Source of the DNA: Ursus arctos
Lineage: Eukaryota; Chordata; Mammalia; Carnivora; Ursidae
NCBI RefSeq assembly: GCF_023065955.2
Contig: NW_026622908.1
Coordinates: 47,775,367 to 47,839,366, forward strand
Length of the DNA: 64,000 nucleotides
Reading direction: 5' to 3'
The translations under genes and the position numbers were made by a program. Positions 21,401 to 49,325 of the stretch are shown here, in pieces. Each line of letters begins with the position of its first letter. Positions within the stretch are counted from its first letter, which is position 1. Under the pieces are notes generated by a model. It made no database searches. It saw nothing but the letters and a program-made list of their open reading frames with translations, and was not told the DNA's origin.

Positions 21401-24400
21401 GTCCCCAGGGGAGGTCTCAAGGACACTGCGCTCAGAGGCCCCTGGAGACACTGGGGCTCATGCCGAGGGTAGAGCTCCCCAGGCCACAGGAACCAGCAAC
21501 CCCACACGAGCGTGTGCCCAGTGCCTGTGCTCGGGGAGGGAGCTTCTGCCACAGAGGCCTGGGACCAGGGCGGGTGGTGGGAGCACGAGTGGGGAAGGTC
21601 AAGGGACCCCTGCATGTCGCCAAGGGCCTGAGAGAACGGCCCAGTCCCCGCCGAGCGAGGGAACGGGTGCACCTGTGCGCCTGTGTGGGCGCCCTCGCCC
21701 TCGCCACGCACCTGGACCTCAATGGGCATCAGCTGCAGCGTCTTGAGCAGCACCTCCTGGGACTCGTAGCGCACGATGAGCGTGCGGGGGCAGGACACCT
21801 GGTCGTTGACGTCACAGTGGTAGTTGTCGATGTAGACCCCAAAGTTGCCCAGCGTGGGGGCGATCTCCTCCACAAGCACGTACGTGCAGTTTCCCTGGTA
21901 GCTGTAGTACAGCCCGTCGAACGTCACGTAGTGGGGGTCCCCCCAGCCTGTGCAGTAGCCTGAAGAAGGAGCTGCACTGAGCCACACCGAGCCCCGGCCC
22001 GGGGGCTGCACGGGGACAGGCGCCGGTGAAAGCCCAGGGACGGGTGGGATCAGCAAGCAGGAATGGGGAGGGGGGGCGCACATTCCCGCTCCTGGGGCGT
22101 GCGGGGCATCCAAGCCCATTCTGTGGGACAGAGCCTCGCCGTGGAGCCAAAAGGCCTGGGTTCCGAGTCCAGCTCTGCCCCTCCAGCCCCAGGACCAGCC
22201 TCCTTCTGGGAGGTGGCTGTGCCCCACCAGGCAAGCCCCTCCCACGCCCGGACCCCCAGCCCGAGATGGGAAGCAAGCAGGAGGCCCAGCACAGTCGGCC
22301 GGCACATTCAGCCTGCGGTCTGCACCCAAGGACCTCAGGGCCTGCAGCCCCCTGCTCACAGAAGGGAGAAGATGGAGGGCCCTGCAGTGTCAGGGGGCTT
22401 ACAGTCACATTCCCAGTGCTCGCAGCACTCGTGGGGACCCCGGACGAGCACGGGCTGGAGGCCGTTGGAGCAGGTGGGCATGGGCGGGGTTTCGCACTCC
22501 ACCTCCACGAGCTCCACGGTGTTGTTGTACTTGCAGATCGCCATGGTGCAGTTACACAGCCACCACGTCTCGTTCTCCTACGGCGGGAATGGCTCGGCAT
22601 CAGCAGAGGCCAGCCTGGACCCACCCCGGCCCCCGCTGGAGGCTGGGGCACCGGGTGCCCCGGGCAGGAGGCAGCTCACTGCCAGCCACCTCACTGCAGC
22701 AAGGGAGGCGTGGGTGAGAAGGGGGCTCCAGCAGACCTGAGCCCAAAAGTCCACTTGAAGCCTCAGTGGTGGCACAGGGCGTCGGGACAGGGGTGTCTTG
22801 GGTGACCAGCAGAAAGGCAGTGCCTGGGCTCTGGAAGCCTGGCTGGTGGGTGCATGGTCTCAGGGCCAAGAGGACAAAAAGTCGCCCACAGCACACTGAC
22901 CTGTCTGGGAGGATCGAAGTCTGGGCACGCAGGGGGCTTGGTGGTGGCCGGTGTGCTCGATGCCGTGGGCGTGGGTGGTTTGGATGTCGAGGTCGGTGTC
23001 GTCTTGGAGGGGGTGGGCGTTGGGGAGGGTGTGGACGGGCATGACCAGTTGAAGATCTCGATGGCGCACAACACCGAGCAGTTCACGTAATAGCAGGTGT
23101 CCCCGTGCGTGCCGTTGTACACCAACTCGCCTGCGAGGGGAGAGAGACCAGTCCTGCACTGTCCCCCAGGGCTGTCCACCAGGGCTGTCCACCAGGGCAT
23201 GCAGGCAGGTGCCCACGAGGCCACCAACCCCCACTTCCCTGACTCATGGCTACAGCAAAGGGGGGCTGATCACAGGGCAGCCGCCCACACCCAGCATCCA
23301 GCTTCCCAAGCGAGCTCCTGGTTTAGACTGACCACTGGTGAAACCAGAGACCAAAGCCCAACCAGCCTCTGTCGCCTGAGAGCCAGAGTGAAAATCTTGG
23401 GTACCTGGTGCATAGTATGTGCCGTTCAAAAAGCAGCATGTCTCCTGAGGGGAGGAGGCGACTGGGGTCGTGATGCCTGGGCGCGTGCTTATACTGACGT
23501 TTGGAGTGGAGATTGGGGTCGGTGTGGGCGTGGGCACAAAGGAGGTCGTGGTGCTGGTGATCTGTGGCCTGGACGGTGTGGGCGGCGTGGGCGTTCCTGT
23601 GGTGGTCGTTGACACCGTCGTAGGAGTGGGCGTGGAGGGGGTGCCCGTGGTGGTGCTGATGGTGGGGGTTGGGGTCGGGGTGCCCGTGGTGGTACTGATG
23701 GTGGGGGTTGGGGTCGGGGTGCCCGTGGTGGTGGTGATGGTGGGGGTCGGGGTCGGGGTGCCCGTGGTGGTGGTGATGGTGGGTGTCGGAGTCAGGGTGC
23801 CTGTGGTGGTGCTGATGGTGGGGGTCGGGGTCGGGGTGCCCGTGGTGGTAGTGATGGTGGGGGTTGGGGTTGGGGTGCCTGTGGTGGTGCTGATGGTGGG
23901 GGTTGGGGTTGGGGTGCCTATGGTGGTGGTGATGGTGGGGGTTGGAGTCGGGGTGCCCGTGGTGGTGGTACTTGAGGTGGGTGTTGGGGTCTCTGTGCCT
24001 GTGGTGATGGTGATGGTGGGGGTCGGGGTGCCCGTAGTGGTGGTGGTTGGACTGGTAGTGATGGTGGGTGTTGGGGTTGGAGTGCCTGTGGTGGTGGTGA
24101 TGGTGGGGGTTGGAGTCAGGGTGCCCGTGGTGGTGGTACTTGGGGTGGGTGTTGGGGTCTCTGTGCCTGTGGTGATGGTGATGGTGGGGGTCGGGGTGCC
24201 CGTAGTGGTGGTGGTTGGACTGGTAGTGATGGTGGGTGTTGGGGTTGGGGTGCCTGTGGTGGTGGTGATGGTGGGAGTTGGAGTCGGGGTGCTCGTGGTA
24301 GTGCTGATGGTGGGGGTTAGGGTTGGGGTGCCTGTGGTGGTGGTGATGGTGGGGGTCGGGGTCGTAGTGGTGGTGGTTGGACTGGTAGTGATGGTGGGTG

Positions 24401-27400
24401 TTGGGGTTGGAGTGCCTGTGGTGGTGGTGATGGTGGGTGTTGGGGTCGGGGTGCCCGTGGTGGTGGTAGTCGTGGTGGTGCTTGGAGTGGTGGTGATGGT
24501 GGGGGTTGGGGTTGGGGTTGGGGTGCCCGTGGTCGTGCTAATGGTGGGTGTTGGGGTCGGGGTGCCTGTGGTGGTGGTAGTTGTGGTGGTGCTCATAGTG
24601 GTGGTGATGGTGGGGGTTGGGGTTGGGGTGCCCGTGGTAGTGCTAATGGTGGGGGATGGGGTTGGGGTGCCTGTCGTGGTGCTGATGGTGGGTGTAGGAG
24701 TCGGGGTGCCCGTGGTGGTGGTAGTTGTGGTGGTGCTTGGAGTGGTGGTGATGGTGGGGGTTGGGGTCTCGGTGCCTGTGGTAGTGCTGATGGTGGCGGT
24801 TGGTGTTGGGGTGCCCGTGGTGGTGCTGATGGTGGATGTCAGGGTGCCTGTGGTGGTGGTGACAGTGGGTGTAGGGGTTGGTGTGCCTGTGGTGGTGGTG
24901 GTGGTACTTGGGGTGGGTGTCGGGGTCTCTGTGCCCGTGGTGGTGGTGATGGTGGGGGTCAGGGTGCCTGTGGTGGTTGGACTGGTAGTGATGGTGGGTG
25001 TTGGGGTTGGAGTGCCTGTGGTAGTGGTAATGGTGGGTGTAGGGGTTGGGGTGCCTGTGGTGGTGGTGGTGGTGGTGGTACTTGGGGTGGGTGTTGGGGT
25101 CTCTGTGCCTGTGGTGGTGGTGATGGTGGGGGTCGGGGTGCCTGTGGTGGTGGTGATGGTGGGAGTTGGAGTCGGGGTGCCCGTGGTAGTGCTGATGGTG
25201 GGGGTTGGGGTTGGGGTGCCTGTGGTGGTGGTGATGGTGGGGGTCGGGGTCGTAGTGGTGGTGGTTGGACTGGTAGTGATGGTGGGTGTTGGGGTTGGAG
25301 TGCCTGTGGTGGTGGTGATGGTGGGTGTTGGGGTCGGGGTGCCCGTGGTGGTGGTAGTCGTGGTGGTGCTTGGAGTGGTGGTGATGGTGGGGGTTGGGGT
25401 TGGGGTTGGGGTGCCCGTGGTCGTGCTAATGGTGGGCGTTGGGGTCGGGGTGCCTGTGGTGGTGGTAGTTGTGGTGGTGCTCATAGTGGTGGTGATGGTG
25501 GGGGTTGGGGTTGGGGTGCCCGTGGTAGTGCTAATGGTGGGGGATGGGGTTGGGGTGCCTGTCGTGGTGCTGATGGTGGGTGTAGGAGTCGGGGTGCCCG
25601 TGGTGGTGGTAGTTGTGGTGGTGCTTGGAGTGGTGGTGATGGTGGGGGTTGGGGTCTCGGTGCCTGTGGTAGTGCTGATGGTGGCGGTTGGTGTTGGGGT
25701 GCCCGTGGTGGTGCTGATGGTGGATGTCAGGGTGCCTGTGGTGGTGGTGACAGTGGGTGTAGGGGTTGGTGTGCCTGTGGTGGTGGTGGTGGTACTTGGG
25801 GTGGGTGTCGGGGTCTCTGTGCCCGTGGTGGTGGTGATGGTGGGGGTCAGGGTGCCTGTGGTGGTTGGACTGGTAGTGATGGTGGGTGTTGGGGTTGGAG
25901 TGCCTGTGGTAGTGGTAATGGTGGGTGTAGGGGTTGGGGTGCCTGTGGTGGTGGTGGTGGTGGTGGTACTTGGGGTGGGGGTTGGGGTCGGGGTGCCTGT
26001 GGTGGTGGTGATGGTGGGAGTTGGAGTCGGGGTGCCCGTGGTAGTGCTGATGGTGGGGGTTGGGGTTGGGGTGCCTGTGGTGGTGGTGATGGTGGGGGTC
26101 GGGGTCGTAGTGGTGGTGGTTGGACTGGTAGTGATGGTGGGTGTTGGGGTTGGAGTGCCTGTGGTGGTGGTGATGGTGGGTGTTGGGGTCGGGGTGCCCG
26201 TGGTGGTGGTAGTCGTGGTGGTGCTTGGAGTGGTGGTGATGGTGGGGGTTGGGGTTGGGGTTGGGGTGCCCGTGGTCGTGCTAATGGTGGGCGTTGGGGT
26301 CGGGGTGCCTGTGGTGGTGGTAGTTGTGGTGGTGCTTGTAGTGGTGGTGATGGTGGGGGTTGGGGTTGGGGTGCCCGTGGTAGTGCTAATGGTGGGGGAT
26401 GGGGTTGGGGTGCCTGTCGTGGTGCTGATGGTGGGTGTAGGAGTCGGGGTGCCCGTGGTGGTGGTAGTTGTGGTGGTGCTTGGAGTGGTGGTGATGGTGG
26501 GGGTTGGGGTCTCGGTGCCTGTGGTAGTGCTGATGGTGGCGGTTGGTGTTGGGGTGCCCGTGGTGGTGCTGATGGTGGATGTCAGGGTGCCTGTGGTGGT
26601 GGTGACAGTGGGTGTAGGGGTTGGTGTGCCTGTGGTGGTGGTGGTGGTACTTGGGGTGGGTGTCGGGGTCTCTGTGCCCGTGGTGGTGGTGATGGTGGGG
26701 GTCAGGGTGCCTGTGGTGGTTGGACTGGTAGTGATGGTGGGTGTTGGGGTTGGAGTGCCTGTGGTAGTGGTAATGGTGGGTGTAGGGGTTGGGGTGCCTG
26801 TGGTGGTGGTGGTGGTGGTGGTACTTGGGGTGGGTGTTGGGGTCTCTGTGCCTGTGGTGGTGGTGATGGTGGGGGTCGGGGTGCCTGTGGTGGTTGGACT
26901 GGTAGTGACGGTGGGTGTTGGGGTTGGGGTGCCCGTGGTTGTGCTAATGGTGGGTGTTGGGGTCGGGGTGCCCGTGGTGGTGGTAGTCGTGGTGGTGCTC
27001 AGAGTGGTGGTGATGGTGGGTGTAGGGGTTGGGGTGCCTGTGGTAGTGCTAATGGTGGGGGTTGGGGTTGGGGTGCCTGTCGTGGTGCTGATGGTGGGTG
27101 TCGGAGTCAGGGTGCCCGTGGTGGTGGTGATGGTGGGGGTTGGAGTCGGGGTGCCCGTGGTGGTGCTAGTCGTGGTGGTGCTTGGAGTGGTGGTGATGGT
27201 GGGGGTTGGGGTTGGGGTGCCCGTGGTCGTGCTAATGGTGGGTGTTGGGGTCGGGGTGCCCGTAGTGGTAGTGGTTGGACTGGTAGTGATGGTGGGTGTT
27301 GGGGTTGGAGTACCTATGGTGGTGGTGATGGTGGATGTCGGGGTCGGGGTGCCCGTGGTGGTGGTAGTTGTGGTGGTGCTTGGAGTGGTGGTAATGATGG

Positions 27401-30400
27401 GGGTTGGGGTCTCGGTGCCTGTGGTAGTGCTGATGGTGGCGGTTGGTGTTGGGGTGCCCGTGGTGGTGCTGATGGTGGATGTCAGGGTGCCTGTGGTGGT
27501 GGTGACGGTGGGTGTAGGGGTTGGGGTGCCTGTGGTGGTGGTGGTGGTACTTGGGGTGGTTGTCAGGGTCTCTGTGCCTGTGGTGGTGGTGATGGTAGGG
27601 GTCGGGGTGCCTGTGGTGGTTGGACTGGTAGTGATGGTGGGTGTTGGGGTTGGAGTGCCAGTGGTAGTGGTAATGGTGGGTGTAGGGGTTGGGGTGCCTG
27701 TGGTGGTGGTGGTGGTACTTGGGGTGGGTGTTGGGGTCTCTGTGCCTGTGGTGGTAGTGATGGTGGGGGTTGGGGTGCCTGTGGTGGTTGGACTGGTAGT
27801 GATGGTGGGTGTTGGGGTTGGGGTGCCCGTGGTCGTGCTAATGGTGGGTGTTGGGGTCGGGGTGCCCGTGGTGGTGGTAGTCGTGGTGGTGCTCAGAGTG
27901 GTGGTGATGGTGGGTGTAGGGGTTGGGGTGCCCGTGGTCATGCTAATGGTGGGGGTTGGGGTTGGGGTGCCCGTGGTGGTGCTGATGGTGGGGGTTGGGG
28001 TTGGGCTGCCCGTGGTGGTGCTGATGGTGGGGGTTGGAGTCGGAGTGCCTGTGGTGGTGGTGATGGTGGGTGTCGGAGTTGGGGTGCCCGTGATGGTGGT
28101 AGTCGTGGTGGTGCTCGGAGTGGTGGTGATGGTGGGGGTTGGGGTTGGGGTGCCCGTGGTCGTGCTAATGGTGGGCGTTGGGGTCGGGGTGCCCGTAGTG
28201 GTGGTAGTCGTGGTGGTGCTCAGAGTGGTGGTGATGGTGGGGGTAGGGGTTGGGGTGCCCGTGGTGGTGCTGATGGTGGGGGTTGGAGTCGGGGTGCCTG
28301 TGGTGGTGGTGATGGTGGGTGTCGGAGTCGGGGTGCCCGTGATGGTGGTAGTCGTGGTGGTGCTCGGAGTGGTGGTGATGGTGGGGGTTGGGGTTGGGGT
28401 GCCCGTGGTCGTGCTAATGGTGGGCGTTGGGGTCGGGGTGCCCGTAGTGGTGGTAGTCGTGGTGGTGCTCAGAGTGGTGGTGATGGTGGGGGTTGGGGTT
28501 GGGGTGCCCGTGGTCGTGCTTATGGTGGGCGTTGCGGTCGGGGTGCCCGTGGTGGTGGTAGTCGTGGTGGTGCTTGGAGTGGTGGTGATGGTGGAGGTTG
28601 GGGTTGGGGTGCCCATGGTCGTGCTAATGGTGGGCGTTGGGGTCGGGGTGCCCGTAGTGGTGGTAGTCGTGGTGGTGCTCGGAGTGGTGGTGATGGTGGG
28701 GGTTGGGGTTGGGGTGCCCGTGGTCGTGCTAATGGTGGGGGTTGGGGTTGGGGTGCCTGTCGTGGTGCTGATGGTGGGTGTCGGAGTCGGGGTGCCCGTG
28801 GTGGTGGTAGTCGTGGTGGTGCTCAGAGTGGTGGTGATGGTGGGGGTTGGGGTTGGGGTGCCCGTGGTCTTGCTAATGGTGGGCGTTGCGGTCGGGGTGC
28901 CCGTGGTGGTGGTAGTCGTGGTGGTGCTTGGAGTGGTGGTGATGGTGGGGGTTGGGGTTGCGGTGCCCGTGGTCGTGCTAATGGTGGGCGTTGGGGTCGG
29001 GGTGCCCGTAGTGGTGGTAGTCGTGGTGGTGCTCAGAGTGGTGGTGATGGTGGGTGCAGGGGTTGGGGTGCCCGTGGTAGTGCTAATGGTGGGGGTTGGG
29101 GTTGGGGTGCCTGTCGTGGTGCTGATGGTGGGTGTCGGAGTCGGGGTGCCCGTGGTGATAGTAGTAGTGGTGGTGCTCAGAGTGGTGGTGATGGTGGGGG
29201 TTGGGGTCTCAGTGCCTGTGGTAGTGCTGATGGTGGCGGTTGGTGTTGGGGTGCCCGTGGTGGTGGTGATGGTGGGTGTTGGGGTCGGGGTGCCCGTGGT
29301 GGTGGTAGTCGTGGTGGTGGTTGGACTGGTTGTGATGGTGGGTGTTGGGGTCTCTGTGCCCGTGGTGGTGGTGATGGTGGGGGTCGGAGTCGGGGTGCCT
29401 GTGGTGGTGGTAGTCGTGGTGGTGCTCGGAGTGGTGGTGATGGTGGGGGTCGGGGTCTCTGTGCCCGTGGTGGTGCTGATGGTGGATGTTGGGGTGCCTG
29501 TGGTGGTGGTGACTGTGGGTGTAGGGGTTGGGGTGCCTGTGGTGGTGGTGGTGGTACTTGGGGTGGGTGTTGGGGTCTCTGTGCCCGTGGTGGTGGTGAT
29601 GGTGGGGGTTGGGGTGCCTGTGGTGGTGGTAGTTGGACTGGTTGTGATGGTGGGTGTCGGGGTCTCTGTGACTGTGGAGGTGGTGATGGTGGGAGTCGGG
29701 GTCGAGGTCGGAGTTCCCGTGGTGGTGGTCGTGGTGGTCGTGGTGGTGGTGGTGGTGGTGGTGGTGGTAGGGGTAGTGGTCAGGGTGGTGGCAGGAGGAG
29801 GTGTGGAGATACAGTCCTCAGGTCCTGAACAGCAGACGTTGATCTCATAGTTGAGGCAGAAGGGCTGCGGTATGATCCCTCCTGGCTTCTGGTCTTCATT
29901 TCTGCATACCAGCCCAACGGAGAGGTCACACACCACCTTTTGCCCAAGTTCTTCGATGGGAACGTTAGGAAACTGCGTGGCTCTGCAGGAGATGTTGACT
30001 GCCCAGCCTTCTTTACAGATGTTCTCAATTGATTCGATGTCTCCACCCGGTTTGGAAAAGCTTGGTTTACCTGAATCCAGCCAGCCCGTCCAGTTGCACT
30101 GAGGCACACAGGGAGAAATTGTTGGCTCTCTGGTGGTTGATACTGGGGTAGGTGTGGTGGTGGTGGTGGTTGGGGGTTGTGGAATAGGTGTGGATGTTGA
30201 GGTGGTTGTGGTAGTCGGGATAGGTGTTGGAGTTGGGGTCTCTGTGCCCGTGGTTGTGGTGATGGTGGGAGTCAGAGTTGGCGTGCCTGTGATGGTGGTG
30301 GTTGGAGTGGTGGTTGGAGTGGTGGTTGGCGTGGTGGTCAGAGTGGTGGTTGGAGTGCTGGTGGGAGTGGTGGTGATGGTGGGTGTCGGCGTCTCTGTGC

Positions 30401-33400
30401 CTGTGGTGGTAGTGACGGTGGATGTCAGGGTCGAGGTGCCCGTGGTGGTGGTGGTACTCGGTGTGGTGGTGGTCGGAGTGGGTGTCGGGGTCCCAGTGCC
30501 TGTGGTAGTGGTAATAGTGGTTGTCGAGGTTGGAATGCCGATGGTGGTGGTGATTGGGGTGGTGGTTGGAGTAGTGGTGATGGTAGGTGTCGGAGTCTCT
30601 GTACCTGTGGTGATGGTGATGGTGGGGGTCGGGGTTGGGGTGCCTGTGGTGGTGGTACTCAGGGTGGGTGTTGGGGTCTCAGTGCCTGTGGTGGTGGTAA
30701 TGGTGGGTGTAGGGGTTGGGGTGCCTGTGGTGGTGGTGGTACTCGGGGTGGGTGTTGGGGTCTCAGTGCCCGTGGTGGTGGTGATGGTGGGGGTTGGGGT
30801 GCCCGTGGTGGTGGTGGTTGGACTGGTAGTGATGGTGGGTGTCGGGGTTGGAGTGCCTGTGGTGGTGGTGATGGTGGGGGTTGGGGTTGGGGTGCCTGTG
30901 GTGGTGGTGATGGTGGGTGTCGGAGTCGGGGTGCCCGTGGTAGTGGTAGTCGTGGTGGTGCTCGGAGTGGTGGTGATGGTGGGGGTTGGGGTTAGGGTGC
31001 CCGTGGTCGTGCTAATGGTGGGCGTTGGGGTCGGGGTGCCCGTGGTGGTGGTAGTCGTGGTGGTGCTCAGTGTGGTGGTGATGGTGGGGGTTGGGGTCTC
31101 GATGCCTGTGGTAGTGCTAATGGTGGGTGTTGGGGTCGGGGTGCCTGTGGTGGTGGTGACGGTGGGTGTAGGGGTTGGGGTGCCCGTGGTGGTGGTGACA
31201 GTGGGTGTAGGGGTTGGGGTGCCTGTGGTGGTGGTGGTACTTGGGGTGGGTGTCGGGGTCTCTGTGCCCATGGTGGTGGTGATGGTGGGGGTCGGGGTTC
31301 CCGTGGTGGTGGTAATTGTGGTGGTGCTCAGAGTGGTGGTGATGGTGGGGGTTGGGGTTGGGGTGCCCGTGGTCGTGCTAATGGTGGGTGTTGGGGTCGG
31401 GGTGCCTGTGGTGGTGGTAGTCGTGGTGGTGCTCAGAGTGGTGGTGATGGTGGGGGTTGGGGTCTCGGTGCCTGTGGTAGTGCTGATGGTGGGGGTTGGG
31501 GTCGGGGTGCCCGTGGTGGTGGTGACGGTGGGTGTAGGGGTTGGGGTGCCTGTGGTGGTGGTGGTACTTGGGGTGGGTGTCGGGGTCTCTGTGCCCGTGG
31601 TGGTGGTGATGGTGGGGGTCGGGGTGCCTGTGGTGGTGGTAGTTGTGGTGGTGCTCGGAGTGGTGGTGATGGTGGGTGTAGGGGCTGGGGTGCCCGTGGT
31701 CGTGCTGATGGTGGGGGTTGGGGTCGGGGTGCCCGTGGTAGTGCTGATGGTGGGTGTCAGAGTCAGGGTGCCCGTGGTGGTGCTGATGGTGGGGGTTGGG
31801 GTTGGGGTGCCTGTGGTGGTGGTGATGGTGGGTGTAGGGGTTGGGGTGCCCGTGGTCGTGCTAATGGTGGGCGTTGGGGTCGGGGTGCCCGTGGTGGTGG
31901 TAGTCGTGGTGGTGCTCAGAGTGGTGGTGATGGTGGGGGTTGGGGTTGGGGTGCCCGTGGTGGTGCTGATGGTGGGTGTAGGGGTTGGGGTGCCCGTGGT
32001 GGTGCTGATGGTGGGTGTAGGGGTTGGGGTGCCTGTGGTGGTGGTGATGGTGGGTGTCGGAGTCGGGGTGCCCGTGGTGGTGGTAGTCGTGGTGGTGCAC
32101 GGAGTGGTGGTGATGGTGGGGGTTGGGGTCTCAGTTCCTGTGGTAGTGCTGATGGTGGCGGTTGGTGTTGGGGTGCCCGTGGTGGTGGTGATGGTGGGTG
32201 TAGGGGTTGGGGTGCCCGTGGTGGTGCTGATGGTGGCTGTTGGTGTTGGGGTGCCCGTGGTGGTGGTGATGGTGGCTGTTGGTGTTGGGGTGCCCGTGGT
32301 GGTGGTGATGGTGGGTGTTGGGGTCGGGGTGCCCGTGGTGGTGGTGATGGTGGGTGTTGGGGTCGGGGTGCCCGTGGTGGTGGTAGTCGTGGTGGTGGTT
32401 GGACTGGTTGTGATGGTGGGTGTTGGGGTCTCTGTGCCCGTGGTGGTGGTGATGGCGGGGGTCGGAGTCGGGGTGCCTGTGGTGGTGGTAGTCGTGGTGG
32501 TGCTCGGAGTGGTGGTGATGGTGGGGGTCGGGGTCTCTGTGCCCGTGGTGGTGCTGATGGTGGATGTTGGGGTGCCTGTGGTGGTGGAGACTGTGGGTGT
32601 AGGGGTTGGGGTGCCTGTGGTGGTGGTGGTGGTACTTGGGGTGGGTGTTGGGGTCTCTGTGCCCATGGTGGTGGTGATGGTGGGGGTTGGGGTGCCTGTG
32701 GTGGTGGTGACTGTGGGTGTAGGGGTTGGGGTGCCTGTGGTGGTGGTGGTGGTACTTGGGGTGGGTGTTGGGGTCTCTGTGCCCGTGGTGGTGGTGATGG
32801 TGGGGGTTGGGGTGCCTGTGGTGGTGGTAGTTGGACTGGTTGTGATGGTGGGTGTCGGGGTCTCTGTGACTGTGGAGGTGGTGATGGTGGGAGTCGGGGT
32901 CGAGGTCGGAGTTCCCGTGGTGGTGGTCGTGGTGGTCGTGGTGGTGGTGGTGGTGGTGGTGGTGGTAGGGGTAGTGGTCAGGGTGGTGGCAGGAGGAGGT
33001 GTGGAGATACAGTCCTCAGGTCCTGAACAGCAGACGTTGATCTCATAGTTGAGGCAGAAGGGCTGCGGTATGATCCCTCCTGGCTTCTGGTCTTCATTTC
33101 TGCATACCAGCCCAACGGAGAGGTCACACACCACCTTTTGCCCAAGTTCTTCGATGGGAACGTTAGGAAACTGCGTGGCTCTGCAGGAGATGTTGACTGC
33201 CCAGCCTTCTTTACAGATGTTCTCAATTGATTCGATGTCTCCACCCGGTTTGGAAAAGCTTGGTTTACCTGAATCCAGCCAGCCCGTCCAGTTGCACTGA
33301 GGCACACAGGGAGAAATTGTTGGCTCTCTGGTGGTTGATACTGGGGTAGGTGTGGTGGTGGTGGTGGTTGGGGGTTGTGGAATAGGTGTGGATGTTGAGG

Positions 33401-36400
33401 TGGTTGTGGTAGTCGGGATAGGTGTTGGAGTTGGGGTCTCTGTGCCCGTGGTTGTGGTGATGGTGGGAGTCAGAGTTGGCGTGCCTGTGATGGTGGTGGT
33501 TGGAGTGGTGGTTGGCGTGGTGGTCGGAGTGGCGGTCGGCGTGGTGGTCAGAGTGCCGGTGATGGTGGTGGTCGGAGTGGTGGTTGGAGTGGTGGTCGGC
33601 GTGGTGGTCAGAGTGCTGGTGATGGTGGTGGACGGTGTTGTGGTTGGAGTGGTGGTCGGAGTGGTGGTCGGAGTGGTGGTTGGCGTGGTGGTCAGAGTGG
33701 TGGTTGGCGTGGTGGTCAGAGTGCTGGTGATGGTGGTGGACGGCGTTGTGGTCGGAGTGATGGTCGGTGTGGTTGTCGGAGTGGTGGTCGGCGTGGTAGT
33801 CAGAGTGCTGGTGATGGTGGTGGTAGGTGTGGTGGTCGGAGTGGTGGTAGGCGTGGTGGTCGGCGTGGTGGTCGGCGTGGTGGTCGGAGTGGTGGTCAGC
33901 GTGGTGGTCAGGGTGCTGGTGATAGTGGTGGTCAGCGTGGTGGTAGGCGTGGTGGTCGGCGTGGTGGTCGGAGTGGTGGTCGGCGTGGTGGTCGGAGTGG
34001 TGGTCGGCGTGGTGGTCGGCGTGGTGGTCAGAGTGCTGGTGATGGTGGTGGTCGGCGTGGTGGTAGGCGTGGTGGTCGGCGTGGTGGTCGGCGTGGTGGT
34101 CAGAGTGCTGGTGATGGTGGTGGTCGGCGTGGTGGTCGGCGTGGTGGTAGGCGTGGTGGTCGGCGTGGTGGTCAGAGTGCTGGTGATGGTGGTGGTCGGC
34201 GTGGTGGTCGGCGTGGTGGTCAGAGTGCTGGTGATGGTAGTGGTCGTTGTGGTTGGCGTGGTGGTCGGAGTGGTGGTGGGTTTTGGGGTCGGGGTGCCCG
34301 TGGTGGTGGTAGTCGGGGGTCCTGGCGTAGGTGTGGAGGTCATGGTCGTGGTTGAGGTGGAGGTGGTGGGAGTGGTCGTGGGGGCCGTGGTTGTGGACAG
34401 GGGACATTCATTCATCGGCACGCAGCAATTGACGCGTATCTCGTAGTCATAACAGACTGCAAACGGCCCGTTTCCAAACTGGTCTTCATTGTAGCAAATG
34501 AACCCAAAGGAGACATTGCACTGTGCCTTCTGGCCCGCCAGCTCCCAGCTCAGGTGGGGCTCCGTGGCCAACCTGCACTCAATGTCCTCAGGGGCACTGC
34601 AGACGCTGTGGAAGGTCTCCCAGTCTCCACCATCACTCTGCGTAGTGGGGTGGTTCTCATTGATCCAGTCGGACCAGAAGCAGCACAGCTCTGGGGAAGG
34701 AAAACCCGAGATTGGTCTCCACCAGCTTCCAGGGAGCTCTCTGGGGCCCAGAGAGGTCAGAGTCCCCATGACCGCCCTTCCTATCATGGCCAAAGAGCCA
34801 GCTTATAGAGTACAGGGCCAGACACCACTGCACACTGAGCCCCAGAGAAGGAAGAGCCCCTCACGCCACATCTGGGTGACAGACCCTGGCCCCAGGGCTC
34901 CGGCCCTGTGCCCTTTCCTCAGCTGATTTCAAATCCTGGTGCCCAAAAAAGTAAATCCCGGAAGGGTCACCCACTGCAGTGAGGAGGCCCATGGGAAGTG
35001 GCCTGGTCTGGACTCCTGACCGACAGTGCCGTCACCCAGCACCGGTCCGCTCCCCGTGCTGAGCCCAGGGACTGGTGAGAGCACCCTCCCTGCACAAGCA
35101 AGCGGCCCAGCCACCTGGCCCCACAGCTGGGTCTCCTGGAAAGTTCCCTTTCCCTCCTGTCCCACCACCGCCCACCCGCCACTGGGGACGGCCCAAGGGA
35201 CCTACTTGTAGTTACTGGGGCCGAGGATGGAGCTACAGAAGCACGGGGAGGGAAAGAAACCTGTCATTAGATAGTTGGACGTCTTTAAAAATCTTTTTTC
35301 ATTTTAACAACTTCCTCTTTCCTGCGGCTGTCGCGCCCCAGCGGCTTGTCCAGTGGTGGCTTCCACCTCAGCGGGAATGAGCGCATGGGAGTCTAGGGAC
35401 GTTTGTCTGCTTTCTCAAGGACAGCCTCAGGGATATTCTCTTGCTGGTTCAGGAAATATCCCTGGGTCACCTTCCCTGCGGTCTGGGCTCAGGGGTGTGG
35501 TTGTGATATTGGCTGGCATCTCCACTCAAAAGGCCAGGGGCCCAGGGACATCCCCTGAGCCAAGATGCCGGTCGTTGTCACCTCCAGCTAACAGAGGTGA
35601 GAGCCTGCTGTGTCCTGCCCCCCGCCCCCGTCCCCCTTCAGCCCCTGGAAGGGCCACTTCCGCCGGGCTTGGGGGAAGGCAGGCACGCCCTGGCGGTGAG
35701 GGGGGCGTGCCCTGGGGCCTTACTTGTGCTGGTGGTTGGGGTGGTGGTGGTGGTGGTGGTGGTGGTGGTGGTGGTGGTGACGGGGCTGCTGGGGGTGACG
35801 GGGATCGTAGTGGAGGGCGGCCGGGGGGTGGAGACTACACAGATGTTGAAGTGTTTCTCTATCGTCCCGTTGGGGCCACAGATCTCCCAGTAGCAGAAGG
35901 AGCCATCCTGGGTGTAGTTGAGAATCTTCCCTGGGGGGCAGGAGGGAGGCCCAGGTGAGCAGGGCAGGAACAAGACAGAGACTCTCCAGAACCCCTCAGG
36001 TGTCCCCCAGCGTTAACATACACTGGACCAAGTCCCCCTCGGGACTCCACGTCCGGACCCTGAAGGGCACAGAAGCGGGATGGCGGACGGGCGACCTCGG
36101 CTCCCGTCACCAGCGCGGGGGAGACCGCGGCAAGTCGGAGCCGGCTCTGAGCTGGGGAAGGCCCTGGGGGGCCACCGGGCGGGGGAGGGTGAGACGGAGC
36201 CCCGCCCCCGGAGTCCGGACACAGGCCGCCTGGAGGCTCTCCCGGGGCCCCCTCGGGGTGGACGCAGGGGGCAGCTTACCTTCTTCGGGCCGGCAGACGA
36301 CCTCCGAGGTGTTGGTACACACGCTGCAAAGCAAGTGCAGAGTTCAGACCCCGGGGACGGGCCCTCCTGGCCTCCCGCCCTGGCCTCCCGCCCTCCTGTG

Positions 36401-39400
36401 GCTCCGAGTCCGTCGCCGGGTTCGGACTGTGGGCAGAGGAGGAGGACGAGGTGAGGCCGGCAACGGCGGGCAGAGGAGGCTGTGAAGAGAAGGCTCACCT
36501 CCGCCCGTGGACAGGAGCTCGTGCCCCCAAGCCCTGGCTCCTGTGGCGGGCACACGTGGCCGCGTGCGTGCCCTTGCGTGTGTGAGCGCGTGGCGTGCGT
36601 GCGGGTGTGTGCGCGTGCGTACACGTGTGTCTGACCTCCCCCGGGCCTGGCACGTGAGCTTAGGTACCAAGACTGGCAGTCCTTATCGGTGGGGACGGAT
36701 CCTCCAGGCGGGTAGCGGGTGTCCCCGACGTAGCAGCCGCACTTGTCAGCCCGGACACACTGTTTCAGGTCCTCGTCGTAGATGGGCCTGCCCTTGGGAC
36801 ACTGGGGGTAGCAGCCTGACGGGCACAGGGCATGGGGCTTGGACCGCTGCGGAGGGCCCCACGGCCACCACACCCCACCTACCGCCCACATCACAGCAGG
36901 TCCTTCTCTCCAGGAGGTTCCTCTGGGAAGGCCAGGGAACCACAGGACAGAGGCCTGGACCCCCCCCCCCCCCCGACTGGGCCCTGTATGCTGCCATATG
37001 GCCAAAGGGACAGCCAGCTTGACCCAACCATGTCCTTCCCACGGGCTAGGATGCTCCCTCCCAGAGCTGGCTCACTTCATCACGCCCCTAGTTCTCGGCT
37101 CAGAGGCCCTGCAGAGTCCCCCAGACCCGCTGTCTGGGACACCCTGGCTTGTCCCGCCCTGCAGCTTCCTGGGGGCCCTGTCCGCTCCTGGATCCTGTCT
37201 GCCTCTCTCAGCTCCGTGGGCACACTCTGAAGAAAGGTGACCCCGGTCCACCTGGACGTCAGGGCACCAGCTCCACGGGGCATCCCTCGCGGGGACGCCG
37301 TCCCTCCACCCCTGAGGCCCGCTCACCCTCCAGGTAGGACACAGAGATGTTAGAATGGATGCCGTTGATGGTCCTGCAGGTCTCGAAGCTGCGGTTCCCA
37401 CAGGGCTCGTAGTGCCACTCACACTCGTCTGGGGGGTTGTAGTAGTCACAGAATATGGCTGCAGACGGGGAGCGGAGGTGGCCAGATTCAGGGAGGGCTG
37501 AGGCCAGGCCAGCACAGCCCCCAAGGAGCAACACTTGGGCCCTGGGGCCAGGGAGGCAGAAAGGGGACCCCATATGCCCATCGCTTCGAGGGGGAAGGAC
37601 TGCCAGCGCAGCCCCCCGGCCCCAGGACAGGCAGACACTCACGGCACAGGTCTGGCGTCCTCCAGAACACGCAGGCCCCCTCCTTAGTGCACGCCTGAGC
37701 GTAGGAGGCCACGGCGGAGCAGAAGCACTCACAGTCCCCGCCTGTGTCGCAGGAGCAGGAGTCGTGGACGCAGGCCTCGTAGAAGGGCTTGGGGTCCACC
37801 TGGGGGAGAACGCTCCGTGTGCCCTGGGCCCGCACCGCCCGCGTGGGGCCACACCTGCCCAGGAGCTCCGCACCCCGGGACAGGGTGCGGTCACCCAGCA
37901 CTAGCCTCCCCGGAGACAGGCGGCCAACCCTCCACTCGCCCCCCATGGCCGGAGCTGCGGGCGTCCTTCCTCCCTCCCCGGAAGGCGCAGGAGGAGGGGC
38001 TGAGCCAGGGAAGGACAGAAGGTGGAGCTGAAGCCGCAGGAAAGGTGCCGCGTGGTGGTGGCAGGCTGACTACCGAGCGCGAGCCCACGGCCACGGGCTG
38101 GTCACGGGCCTGCCACAGCCCGCCGCACCTTGCTGTGGCAGACGCCGAAGACGGAGCTCTTGATGAGGCTGCACTGCTTCTCGGCCCAGGAGAGGCGGTG
38201 CGGATTCCGGGCGCACGGATCCGGGGTGATGCTCACGTCCGGACAGGTGGGGGCCTCCTTCCAGCTGTTCCCAAAGTCCAGCTCGCTGTCCACCACCATG
38301 TGGTCCCTCGTGGTGAAGTCATTGCTGGAGCGGTGGTCGAAGTTTCCACACAGCCCGCACACCGTGCCCTGCGGAGACAGCGAGCCGGGGGCTCCGTGCG
38401 GGGGCTCCGACAGCACCGGGAGGGGCAGGCGGGGGAGGGCCACCACGCACCTTGTAGGACGGGGCCAACTTGATGAAGATGCTGGTCTTCTTGTCCCAGA
38501 TGACGATGATGCCGATGCTGGCCTCCACCACCAGGTACTGGCCCACCTCCCGGGTGCTGTAGGCCACATGGTGGCCCGTGTCCCGCTGGATCACCACACG
38601 GCGCTTGTCCTCCAGCTTCAGCTCCGTCCTCTGTGCCGGGGCAGAGGCCCCGTCACTGGCCGGTTCCGAGGGTCCCTGAGGGCTCAGGCGTCCCCAGGGT
38701 CAGGCGGCACTCACCCCCAAGAAGATCTTGATGGCCTTGGAGCAGGTGACGCCCGTGGTGCCACAGGGAACGTTCTCGGTGATGATGCTGAAGGACCCCG
38801 AGGAGGAGTTCTGGCCACAGAAGTCCTGGGGGCCACAGGGGGTGTGAGCCGGACCGGCCAGGCCACCGGTGCCCCCTGGCCCCACCCCGGCTGGGCTTTG
38901 CACAGCCACAGCCCTCCTCTGCTAAGAGGGGTGACCACGCGGCAGGAGGACCCTCAACCCCACACGCAAGCCCCTCACTCCCCGCACGGGGTGGATTAGG
39001 GTCACAGAACGGGCGGACCGAGGCAGGGCTGGCCCAAAACACCGACCCCTTCCCTGGGGCCCCCTCAAGGGGCTGACGGCAGCTCCGAGTGTGGCGTGGG
39101 GCCCCGGGACCGGGGCCGGGCAGGTTCTTGGCCTCACCTGAGCCGCCACGTAGGAGCAGTGCCCGTCGAAATCATAGTACTTCCCATCAAAGGTGATGTA
39201 GTGGCCACTGCCATAGACGGAGCAGGAGCCGTAGCACAGGGACTCGGTGCACGCCCAGCGGCCTTGCCGGCAGGTGCTGAGGAGAGGGGGAAGAGGGCCT
39301 GGAGGGGCCGCAGCAGCCCAGGTCCACCCCCACCCCGCTCAGAGGGCAGCCTGGCCGGGCAGTGCCGTGTGGACGGCCCCGCCAGCGGCTCGCACCACAC

Positions 39401-42400
39401 CTCCACACCCTCGGCCGTGTGGATGGTGCCGCCCCCGCACCCCCGCGGCACGTCCCCCGCCAGAGCGCGTGGGGCCAGGGTCCACCGGACCAGGCCACTC
39501 ACCAGGTGTTGCAGTCCACCTTGATCTTGTCCCCGGGGGAGTACAGGTCCTTGTTGTGCACGCACGGGCACTCCTCCTCCACGACACACCCGCCGCGGCC
39601 GTCATCCATCAGCCCGTCCGGGCAGACGCAGCCGCTGACGCACTCCGTCTGGTACTGCAGGGGCCGGAGAGCGGGCTTCAGGCCCCGATGGCCAAGCCGG
39701 CCCTTCCCGTGCCTGCCCCCTCTCCTCACGCTGCAGACACCCTTTTGTCCCTTCCCCGCCCCGACCCCTGCCCTCTCTCCTCTCTCGGGCTCACACCTGG
39801 GCCGGGAGACGGCGAGGGCTGCTGGCCAGGGATCCCTGCACAGGCCCCGAGCCCTCCGGGGGCTGGGCAGGGGCCCCCAGGGACGGGAGGGCCAGTGCGG
39901 CCCAGGCATGTGAAGGACCGGCATCCAGACCCCAGGTCCAGTGAGGAAGCCAGTCCGCGCCCTCCCCCGCGGGCAGCCCCCCACACTCACGTGGCCGGCA
40001 GCCAGTGTCTGGCAGCTGGTAGGCCGTGGGCTCTGGATGGTTAGTGCGGTCAGGTTGCTGCAGTCAACATGGATCTTGGGGGCGGCGCAGCCTGAGGGAC
40101 AGAGAGGGCCACCTCGCCTCAACGGAAGTTGGGGTGGGGGCTGGGCCAGCAGGGACGGGGTGGGCGCAGGAAGCCATACCCACGGCAGCATCTACTTACT
40201 CTGGCCGAGCAGCCGGACCTGCATGCAGTTCAGCCTCCCGTTCCGGCAGACGCTGCGGGGAAGGGGGGGAGGTGAGCGGGCGTGGCTCCAGGGGAAGGGG
40301 GTGGACACGGGGACGCTCCCCACTGAGGCCACCACTCACCAGCGCTCCTCCTGCCTCAGCACCACCTCCCCGGCCTCCAGGTAGAGGCCACGGTGGTAGC
40401 AGGAGCACTTGGCCAGGGGCACACAGCGGCCCTTCTCGTCCAGGAAGGTGTCGTCGGGGCAGCCGCAGCCATCCACGGGCGCGAAGCCCTGAAGGCAGTG
40501 GGTGTCGGCCTCGGAGAGCGAGCGGCAGGTGGGCTGGCAGCTGGTCAGGTTGTACAGGAACACCTGTGAGTTGGGGCAGGAGCCCACGTCCTCATCTGCG
40601 GAGAGCGGAGGGGTCAGCGTGAGGCGTGGAGGGACGGCCCCCAGCTCCCCTCCCCGCAGGCCACCCCAAGCCCCGCTCTGTCCAGGACGGGCATCTGCCC
40701 GCCCAGCCAAGGGGCCCACGAGAGCCCACGGGAGTCCCTCCACGCTGGAGGCCACGAGCAAAGAGCAGCAGAGGGCTGCCGCGGTGGGCTGACCCCTCCC
40801 GCCACGGGGCACACCGGACGCCGCAGAGGATGGCACTCACTGCAGACTTGCTCCCGCCAGCCCCACAGCATGACGCCCTTAGAGGCACAGGCGCGGGCGT
40901 AAGAGGACAGCGCGGCACACATGCAGCCCTCGCTGTTCTGGCAGTTACACGTGTCGTATTTGCACCTCTGGGGGCGAAGGAGGCAGGCAGTGAGGGAGGG
41001 AAGAGGGTGGGCACAGACACCCACCTGCACACACAGGTGTGCACACTCAGACACCTGTGCACGTTCACACACAGGCTTACGTCCCTGCAAGGTGCACATA
41101 CACGCATGCACACACACACACGTGTGCTTGCACAAACACGCCCAGCAGCTTCGAGCGGCAGCCCGGCAGGCAGGGTCAGGCTCAGCCCGGGCACAGAGCA
41201 CACCTTGCTGGCACGGATCAGGTGGTGAGGAGTGCACATGCGGATCCCACCCACCTTGTAATAGTCCGAGGGGTCCACGGCTGAGTGGCACCGGCCGAAG
41301 GGGGTCTCTGCCTTCTTCAGGAGGGAGCACCAGTGCTCGGCATAGTTGGCTGGAGAGGGGGTCAGAGCCTCAGTGGGGGCAGAGCCCTCCAGCAGGTCTC
41401 CTGAGCCCAGCTGCCTGGCCACCCAGGCTCCTCCAGCTCCGTGCAAGACCACGCCCCTTGTAAGGAGGGACACCCACCGCCTCCCCTCGCTCGACCTCCC
41501 CAGACGTGGTGGGCGGCATGGTGGGTGGGAGGGCGTGCGGTCATGGCACCAGACCAGCCCCAGGACGGGAGCCACCACCCAGTGATTAACGAGCAGGCGG
41601 GCCCCTTTGCTGTGTCTCTTGGCGGACAGCCACCAAGGGCCACCATAAACCAGCCATGTGGCAGAAAGCAGCAGGTGAATGGGCTGGCCACCGGGCCTCC
41701 ACCTGCCCCCACCCGCGTGCCACGTCCCCCTGGGAGCCTCACACGCCCCACGAGGCTGAGCCTCACCGCTCTCGATGTTGAGGGAGCAGGGGTCATCCAG
41801 CCAGTCCAGCTTGTCCTGGCAGCTCGACTGGGCCTTCCAGGTGTTGGCGAAGCCGGCCCCCGTGGCCTCCACCAGCCCACCGGCCGTCTTAAAGTCATCC
41901 CCTTCCAGGCCGTTGAAATTCCCGCAGAGGCCTGAGGGGCCAGGAAAGGGTTAGGAAGGGGCAGGGCACTGGGGGGCAGGCGCTGGGGGGCAGGCCCTGA
42001 GCGGGGCCTCTGTGGGGGCTACCCAAGGGCACCACTCACCCTGCACGCGGCCCTGGGCAGCCTGGCCCAGCGTCACGAAGAGCTGCATGACAGGCACGAG
42101 CTGGACCTGCAGGCTGAGGCCGGAGGCAGTGCTCACCAGGAGGTGGTAGGAGGACGGTTGGAAGATGGAGAAGCTGGCTGCAAGGCAGGCGGCAGGGGCC
42201 CCGGCTGGTCAGCAGGGGCTCTCGAGCCGTGGGGCCGCCCTCCCACCAGCAGCCCCCAACCCCGCTGGGCGCCCCGGCGGCGGGGCTCACCTGTCACGTG
42301 GGGCAGGTTCACCTGCAGCTCATTCAGCAGGACGCTGCCGTCCGACTTGAAGACCAGCACCTGCAGGAGGGGCAGAGGGGACGGCCGGGCTGAGAAGGTC

Positions 42401-48644: not shown

Positions 48645-49325
48645 AGTCCTCCCCTGGGATGGAGAAGGTGGGGTCCTCCCCTGGGACGGAGAAGGTGGGG
48701 TCCTCTCCTGGGATTGAGAAGGTGGGGTCCTCCCCTGGGATGGAGATGCAGTGTCCTCCCCTGGGACTGAGAAGGTGGGATCTTCCCCTGGGACTGAGAA
48801 GGTGGGGTCCTCTCCTGGGACTGAGAAGGTGGTGCCCTCCCCTGGGACTGAGAAGGCGGGGTCCTCTCCTGGAACTGAGAAGGCGGGGTCCTCTCCTGGG
48901 ACTCAGAAGGTGGGGTCCTCCCCTGGGACTCAGAAGGTGGGGTCCTCCCCTGGGACTCAGAAAGTGGGGTCTTCCCCTGGGACTGAGAAGGTGGGATCTT
49001 CCCCTGGGACTGAGAAGGTGGGGTCCTCTCCTGGGACTGAGAAGGTGGGGTCCTACCCTGGGACTGAGAAGGTGGGGTCTTCTCCTGGGACTGAGAAAGT
49101 GGGGTCCTCTCCTGGGACTGAGAAGGTGGGATCTTCCCCTGGGACTGAGAAGGTGGGATCTTCCCCTGGAACTGAGAAGGTGGGGACCTCCCCTGGGACT
49201 GAGAAAGCGGGGTCCTCTCCTGGGACTGAGAAGGTGGGGTCCTCCCCTGGGACTGAGAAGGTGGGGTCCTCCCCTGGGACTGAGAAGGTGGGATTCTCCC
49301 CTTGGATTGAGAAGGTGGGAATTCA
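48645..49325. repeat. 27-bp minisatellite (about 25 copies) upstream of MUC2
   Basis: Units contain GGGACTGAGAAGGTGGGG followed by TCCTCCCCT or TCTTCCCCT. Translation repeats every nine codons (GSSPGTEKV in one frame), so the period is 27 bp. Open frames on both strands are products of the repeat. Confidence 0.93.

What the first reader, a model, noticed from the sequence alone, without database searches (positions are those of the whole stretch)
29488..33515. Third CysD module in MUC2 created by an in-frame duplication with two identical 830-bp blocks
Seen: 29488-30317 and 32686-33515 read the same base for base, 3,198 bp apart (1,066 codons), each with a complete CysD (CVPQCNWTGWLD to CCSGPEDC). 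Known: human and mouse MUC2 have two CysD. Inference: a recent unequal exchange or gene conversion gave a mucin with an extra cross-linking module, which could change mesh size. Perfect identity also fits an assembly duplication, so it needs a direct test.
Basis: partly seen in the sequence, partly recalled or inferred. Interest (0 to 1): 0.78.

Follow-up and report, generated by a model that had tools for sequence, protein, structure and literature searches.

The report
Duplicated CysD module in MUC2
The main gut mucin gene of this mammal carries its second cross-linking module twice in one open exon, a real-looking and recently homogenised duplication; gene models of several other mammals show the same kind of change, so the two-module human and mouse protein is not the only design.

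Summary
Confirmed: 29488-30317 and 32686-33515 are identical over 830 bp, in frame, in the central exon of MUC2 (minus strand, 34690-23405, no stop). The exon encodes three CysD: CysD1 and two identical CysD2. The block is the unbroken part of a longer near-identical tract: past one 120-bp unit indel, 262 bp more with one mismatch. A PTS1-type repeat array precedes the second copy, the mark of an unequal exchange between PTS2 and PTS1 repeats.

An artefact is not excluded without reads, but is unlikely: unique sequence lies between the copies, the frame holds over 11 kb, and gene models from other assemblies show the same architecture. Of 59 mammal labels with a complete MUC2 CysD1, 16 (15 besides the window) have two or more CysD2, up to 7. 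In 16 of 17 proteins compared, copies resemble each other more than any other species' copy.

So the finding is real but no first: a CysD gain with homogenisation, of a kind that mammalian MUC2 models show repeatedly. I found no paper saying so for mammalian MUC2; chicken MUC2 and human MUC5AC/MUC5B alleles are in print. A tighter gel is inference. New member of a known kind.

The parts
15410..46333 (-). MUC2 gene, span of exons matched by ferret MUC2 (N-terminal part 46333-34404, C-terminal part 22556-15410)
   Evidence: tblastn of ferret P0033 residues 1-1400 (1,345 covered) and last 760 (740 covered)
23405..34690 (-). central exon, 11,286 bp, AG acceptor before 34690 and GT donor after 23405; open throughout
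   Evidence: edges by sequence inspection, no transcript seen
34404..34685 (-). CysD1 (MUC2 type, FGNGPF loop, 10 Cys)
   Evidence: Pfam PF13330
33309..34403 (-). PTS1, TTTP-type 12-bp repeats
33009..33308 (-). CysD2, first copy (10 Cys, WTGW)
   Evidence: best PDB match 8s03, named Mucin-2
32686..33515 (-). exact 830-bp block, first copy
32588..32707 (-). extra 120-bp PTS unit present only after the first copy (2 mismatches to its neighbour 32708-32827)
32326..32587 (-). C-terminal extension of near-identity, 262 bp, 1 mismatch to 29248-29509
30360..30860 (-). PTS stretch between the copies, 451 of 451 51-mers unique in the window; degenerate units like those at the ends of the PTS arrays
30291..30350 (-). 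PTS1-type (TTT[P/L/I]) array at the start of the second copy; 27 bp lie in the exact block, 33 bp beyond it; the only array of three or more such units outside PTS1
   Evidence: TRF 30295-30374
29488..30317 (-). exact 830-bp block, second copy
29811..30110 (-). CysD2, second copy, identical protein and DNA
29248..29509 (-). C-terminal extension of near-identity, second copy
23405..29810 (-). PTS2 after the second CysD2, to the exon end
24320..26894 (-). three higher-order PTS2 repeats (offsets 855 and 888 bp) with exact stretches of 556, 542, 496, 353 bp

Best explanation
A genuine MUC2 central exon with the order CysD1-PTS1-CysD2-PTS2a-CysD2'-PTS2b. An unequal exchange between a PTS2 repeat and a PTS1 repeat put a second copy of [PTS1 tail-CysD2-PTS2 head] downstream, in frame because the repeat units are multiples of three. 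The CysD2 segment (about 1.1 kb) has been made identical very recently, by the exchange itself or, more likely, by a later gene conversion or exchange, while the repeats between the copies turned over. The protein gains one more globular, ten-cysteine knot in the glycosylated rod, a further site for chain-to-chain contacts. Shown: sequence, frame, copy structure, PTS1-type array. Inferred: the exchange, its date, expression, and a stiffer or finer-meshed gel.
For: Exact block and frame; one open exon, no frame switch; three PF13330 domains; CysD2 best match in the PDB is Mucin-2 8s03; PTS1-type array before the second copy and in no other place outside PTS1; near-identity beyond the block with a whole-unit 120-bp indel; other exact repeats up to 556 bp in the exon, all 45 listed pairs spaced by multiples of three; 16 of 59 labels, window included, with two or more CysD2; copies more alike within than between species in 16 of 17 proteins; identical blocks reaching into the PTS in other species, e.g. 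ferret 178 aa, cheetah 157 aa.
Against: No reads, second individual or cDNA. Other species' proteins are database gene models, some with frame-switched PTS (cheetah, sea otter). Close carnivores stoat, sea otter, wolf and leopard cat show one CysD2, jaguarundi none. Horse P0053 copies are only 77% alike, less than to donkey; pig copies 82%, with next to no identical block (0 and 9 aa). In cattle, buffalo, sheep and hare the identical blocks are 80-122 aa, the domain and little more. The 32325-31576 segment does not pair best with its expected partner.
Confidence: 0.78

Rival explanations
1. Assembly artefact: a false duplication or a chimera of two haplotypes put the CysD2 block in twice.
For: Perfect identity; a repeat-rich exon, of a kind wrongly assembled in human MUC2 references (PMC6269512, passages); no reads here; the distal PTS2 has few unique 51-mers (242 of 2,601).
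Against: 451 of 451 51-mers unique in the window in 30360-30860 and 1,839 of 2,318 between the blocks, so the second copy has its own context; PTS1-type array; frame intact over 11 kb; own assembly of 2.42 Gb in 362 sequences, window at 47.8 Mb of C148 and free of N, which suggests long reads; same architecture in models from other assemblies.
Confidence: 0.12
2. One recent duplication alone (under about 1 to 2.5 My at assumed rates), no later conversion; the differences between the copies' flanks are later repeat turnover or differences between the two recombining alleles. (A sub-case of the best explanation, so the odds overlap.)
For: 0 of 830 and 1 of 1,070 aligned columns differ; turnover of 0.5-kb units is visible elsewhere in the exon; segment 31575-30826 does align best near its expected partner (1,023 at 28950-27951 against 972 for the best distant place).
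Against: Segment 32325-31576 aligns best elsewhere (994 at 26800-25801; 982 and 964 for the listed windows 28750-27751 and 29050-28051 that overlap the expected place). The PTS before the second copy is as degenerate as true array ends: 26-46 mismatches per 150 in all six steps from 30775 to 30400, median of the exon 5, which suggests an old junction.
Confidence: 0.33
3. An old duplication whose copies stay alike by purifying selection on the CysD protein.
For: CysD2 is conserved between species, about 66-97% to the nearest other species.
Against: Silent sites and about 530 bp of PTS are identical too, and PTS is otherwise fast-changing.
Confidence: 0.02

Closest known systems
Human and mouse MUC2 (two CysD)
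   Same: Gene, CysD1 type, CysD2 type, PTS1-CysD2-PTS2 order, one large central exon in human
   Different: One more CysD2 and a second PTS2 segment in the window
Chicken MUC2 (PMC3549977, passages; PMC1552070, passage)
   Same: More than two CysD in MUC2 (four; at least three)
   Different: Chicken repeat region spans exons 32-45; here one exon and two identical copies
Human MUC5AC P5/P6 and elongated MUC5B alleles (PMC11344006, passages)
   Same: Gain of CysD with PTS by structural change inside one VNTR exon, within a species
   Different: Paralogous genes; alleles shown with long reads in many people
Ferret and cheetah MUC2 gene models (P0033, P0032)
   Same: Two CysD2 with identical sequence and identical PTS flanks on both sides
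   Different: Block limits and PTS repeat types are species-specific; spacing 666 and 501 aa against 1,066
Donkey and hare MUC2 models (P0004, P0002)
   Same: Repeated CysD2 with PTS between
   Different: Six and seven CysD2; hare copies only 83-98% alike

Membership tests
MUC2 (gel-forming mucin) | N-terminal and C-terminal parts colinear with MUC2 | tested here: met
   tblastn with ferret MUC2: 1,345 of 1,400 N-terminal and 740 of 760 C-terminal residues covered
MUC2 (gel-forming mucin) | MUC2-type CysD1 with the two-Phe, one-Pro loop (PMC11912381, passages) | tested here: met
   QFGNGPFAVC in CysD1; the CysD1 region retrieves mammalian MUC2
MUC2 (gel-forming mucin) | CysD2 of MUC2 type | tested here: met
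   Best PDB match 8s03 Mucin-2, E 6.3e-48, against 5.7e-19 for the best MUC5AC chain; that 8s03 is human CysD2 is recalled
MUC2 (gel-forming mucin) | Exactly two CysD, as in human and mouse | tested here: not met
   Three PF13330 stretches; the number is not fixed in mammals, so it does not decide membership
CysD / Mucin2_WxxW (PF13330) | WxxW motif and ten cysteines | tested here: met
   WSDW and WTGW; 10 Cys in each of three domains
CysD / Mucin2_WxxW (PF13330) | Non-covalent or isopeptide cross-linking of mucin chains | not testable with these tools
   Needs protein; TGM3 and CYS-domain work in PMC8752817 (passages) and PMC6861317 (abstract, introduction, one results section)
Carnivoran genome (arctoid) | tRNA-derived SINE of carnivoran type; CysD2 nearest to mustelids | tested here: inconclusive
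   Three carnivoran-type SINE hits (motifs recalled); CysD2 grouped with mustelids 97/88; species not named

The most novel reading that the evidence does not exclude
In mammalian MUC2 the [PTS-CysD2-PTS] stretch is an evolving cassette: its copy number has changed in many lineages (1 to 7 CysD2), copies are kept alike within a species by repeated exchange, and the number may vary among individuals, so gel cross-link density would be a fast-evolving, possibly polymorphic trait. The human and mouse count of two CysD would then be one state among many.
Probability: 0.55. Interest if true: 0.6.

Novelty: new member of a known kind. Interest (0 to 1): 0.42.

Why it matters
CysD domains are the globular knots between the glycosylated rods of gel-forming mucins. 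Colonic mucus of mice that secrete a protein of twelve CysD had a 20.3% smaller mean mesh size than wild type (PMC6861317, section read). If MUC2 of many mammals differs in CysD2 number, cross-link density of the gut barrier differs between species by gene structure, and human and mouse are not fair stand-ins for all. It also gives a natural series (2 to 8 CysD in the models) to test what CysD number does.

Tried and rejected
Chance repeat: rejected by length. A third copy of the CysD2 block in the window: none among the blastn rows shown, and only three CysD in six frames. Purifying selection as the cause of identity: rejected, PTS and silent sites are identical too. Frame as proof against artefact: not used, since the PTS units are multiples of three and joins between them would stay in frame. 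Exact-match end as breakpoint: rejected on the C-terminal side, where it is a 120-bp unit indel. A full 3.2-kb tandem unit: only the 1.1-kb tract is clearly copy-specific; of the next two 750-bp segments one pairs best elsewhere and one weakly as expected. The own-genome search with the 830-bp block listed 85 weak matches, none of them the window's own two copies (one lies in its PTS1), because the tool skips repeat words; so it says nothing on further copies or a second haplotype. Literature: searches gave no paper on extra CysD in mammalian MUC2; listings were capped (e.g. 20 of 87, 10 of 127) and most subscription papers are not held.

Own weaknesses: one search used 1,092 columns for the age bound, counting 22 bp twice; the right number is 1,070 with 1 mismatch. 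The 2.2e-9 rate is assumed. In one search the 'best other species' printed for the window is its own second copy through a label error; the correct value, in the same call, is 81% to ferret. The protein searches start from the window's own sequence and are limited to 2,117-6,737 aa and 880-2,800 aa, so the census is not a random sample; the CysD1 search alone gives 14 of 57 labels with two or more CysD2. Domains under 80 aa were not counted.
Full report
OBSERVATION. 29488-30317 and 32686-33515 are identical over 830 bp and not extendable at either end; offset 3,198 bp, a multiple of three. The coding strand is minus. A 3,850-codon stop-free frame (23253-34802) holds an exon that I place at 34690-23405 (11,286 bp) from an AG acceptor and a GT donor. 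In that frame the PTS part is rich in T/P/S/A/G/I, and H/D/N/Q/Y are at zero in the 100-residue windows outside the CysD and the exon end, so there is no frame switch; the cheetah and sea otter database models do show such switches.

IDENTITY. Pfam finds three Mucin2_WxxW stretches. Coordinates: CysD1 34685-34404, CysD2 33308-33009, second CysD2 30110-29811, ten cysteines each. A profile search of the six frames of the window gives these three and no more. The CysD2 best matches PDB chain 8s03, named Mucin-2. Ferret MUC2 matches exons from 46333 to 15410, covering 1,345 of 1,400 N-terminal and 740 of 760 C-terminal residues. So this is MUC2. Three SINE hits look carnivoran, of the bear-seal type rather than dog (motifs recalled), and the CysD2 groups with mustelids (97/88), so an arctoid carnivore is likely.

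ANATOMY OF THE DUPLICATION. In a gapped alignment the first copy has one extra 120-bp PTS unit (32588-32707, itself a copy of its neighbour with 2 mismatches), after which 262 bp match with one difference; in all 808 + 262 = 1,070 aligned columns with 1 mismatch. On the N-terminal side identity ends inside a TTTP array. Of 10 arrays of three or more TTT[P/L/I] units in the exon, 9 lie in PTS1, in front of the first copy, and one (30350-30291) at the start of the second copy, 33 bp of it outside the exact block. That is the mark of an exchange between a PTS2 repeat and a PTS1 repeat. The 45 longest of 372 exact repeat pairs in the exon are all spaced by multiples of three; besides the 830-bp pair there are pairs of 556, 542, 496 and 353 bp at 24.3-26.9 kb, so recent long duplication is a habit of this exon.

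ONE EVENT OR TWO. At an assumed 2.2e-9 substitutions per site per year, 0 of 830 bounds the last common sequence of the blocks at about 1.0 My, and at about 2.2 My with 1e-9. But the PTS just before the second copy is degenerate: 26 to 46 mismatches per 150 to its best match in the six steps from 30775 to 30400. Of 145 steps over the exon (median 5), the eleven worst lie at the start of PTS1 (2), near the end of PTS2 (4: 23603, 23678, 24053, 24203) and here (5) (its steps include the CysD2, whose other copy is a match). Repeats at array ends are known to degenerate more in MUC2 (PMC13345508, passage), so this place looks like an old array end. Also, the 750 bp after the near-identical tract of the first copy do not pair best with the matching place after the second copy; the next 750 bp do, weakly. 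I read this as an older duplication with a later homogenising exchange, at about 60 to 40 over a single recent event.

ARTEFACT. Against: 451 of 451 51-mers in 30360-30860 and 1,839 of 2,318 between the blocks are unique in the window; the own assembly is 2.42 Gb in 362 sequences with the window at 47.8 Mb of C148 and no N in the window. For: the distal PTS2 has only 242 of 2,601 unique 51-mers, so its repeat number may be wrong, and no reads were seen.

RELATIVES. Two full-length searches, with the CysD2 region (96 proteins) and the CysD1 region (81 proteins), and one with a shorter frame (15 proteins) gave 136 different proteins. I put 80 of 137 sequences (136 plus the window) in the census: those named or looking like mammalian MUC2, chosen by name and identity; MUC5 and non-mammals were left out. 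69 of 80 have exactly one complete CysD1. They make 59 labels (hybrids and one alpaca 'like' gene counted apart). By the highest count per label, 20 have no CysD2, 23 have one, 11 two (window included), 3 three, 1 six, 1 seven. Those with two or more besides the window: hare, donkey, horse, bilby, sheep, alpaca, cheetah, ferret, cattle cross, buffalo, pig, kangaroo rat, squirrel monkey, and the bats Hipposideros and Sturnira. The CysD1 search alone, which does not favour CysD2 number, gives 14 of 57 labels with two or more. Counts differ within species: sheep 3, 3, 2, 1, 1 in five proteins; pig 2, 1, 0, 0 in four. That may be real variation or assembly and model error. The zeros may be models cut short.

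CONCERTED PATTERN. For 17 of the 25 census proteins with two or more CysD2 (left out: an isoform, further horse, donkey and sheep models, reindeer, one Rhinolophus), the lowest identity between copies in a protein exceeds the best identity to any other species in 16 of 17; the exception is horse P0053, 77% within against 88% to donkey (for the window 100% within, 81% to ferret). The tree (96 columns, weakly resolved) mostly groups copies by species, with the pika inside the hare set at low support and the two horse copies apart. Longest identical stretches through a CysD2 pair, 18 proteins: donkey 724 aa, bilby 282, window 282, alpaca 277, kangaroo rat 199, ferret 178, cheetah 157, Sturnira 153, squirrel monkey 151, Hipposideros 126, sheep 122, 105 and 94, cattle cross 95, hare 94, buffalo 80, pig 9, horse 0. 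So either duplication has recurred or old copies are homogenised; within Bovidae, where cattle, buffalo and sheep all have two or more yet copies cluster by species, homogenisation is the simpler reading.

FUNCTION. Human and mouse MUC2 have two CysD, human MUC5AC nine, MUC5B seven (PMC6861317, introduction). CysD1 of human MUC2 docks in the beaded filament through a loop with two Phe and a Pro (PMC11912381, passages); the window's CysD1 has it, and the duplicated module is of the other, CysD2, type. TGM3 cross-links MUC2, and what survives degradation without it is the PTS-CysD2-PTS core (PMC8752817, passages). A twelve-CysD protein secreted into mouse colonic mucus reduced mesh size by 20.3% (PMC6861317, section read).

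NOVELTY. Chicken MUC2 has four CysD and its authors already suggested smaller pores (PMC3549977, passages). CysD gains within one exon are known as human MUC5AC and MUC5B alleles (PMC11344006, passages). I found no paper on CysD2 gains in mammalian MUC2 (openly licensed PMC papers only, capped listings). The bovine mucin paper (PMC3056801, passages and one section) built a bovine MUC2 mRNA; the text I saw gives no CysD count. Verdict: real, new member of a known kind; the comparative pattern is the more interesting part.

Noticed in passing
24320-26894: Three PTS2 higher-order repeats at offsets 855 and 888 bp with exact stretches up to 556 bp; few unique 51-mers (242 of 2,601 in 24300-26950), so repeat number there may be unreliable.
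   Followed up: partly
P0112, P0119, P0120, P0122 (database proteins): MUC2 models of pygmy sperm whale, orca, dugong and common dolphin (3,285-4,731 aa) have CysD1 but no CysD2: loss in aquatic mammals or models cut short.
   Followed up: no
P0003, P0034, P0039, P0087, P0097 (database proteins): Horse and donkey have MUC2-like proteins in which I found only CysD2-type domains (up to seven), beside ones with CysD1: maybe a second MUC2-like gene in Equus.
   Followed up: no
P0004 (donkey MUC2-like): A 724-aa identical block holds CysD2 copies 1-2 and again 3-4 of the six, a cassette duplication larger than the one in the window.
   Followed up: partly
P0032, P0078 (database proteins): Cheetah and sea otter MUC2 models switch frame inside the PTS (H/D-rich stretches), a sign of assembly or model errors.
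   Followed up: partly
48646-49319: 27-bp tandem repeat, 25 copies, beyond the 5' end of MUC2.
   Followed up: no
23449-29847: Antisense frame open for 2,133 codons on the plus strand, probably a by-product of the GTG-rich repeat.
   Followed up: no
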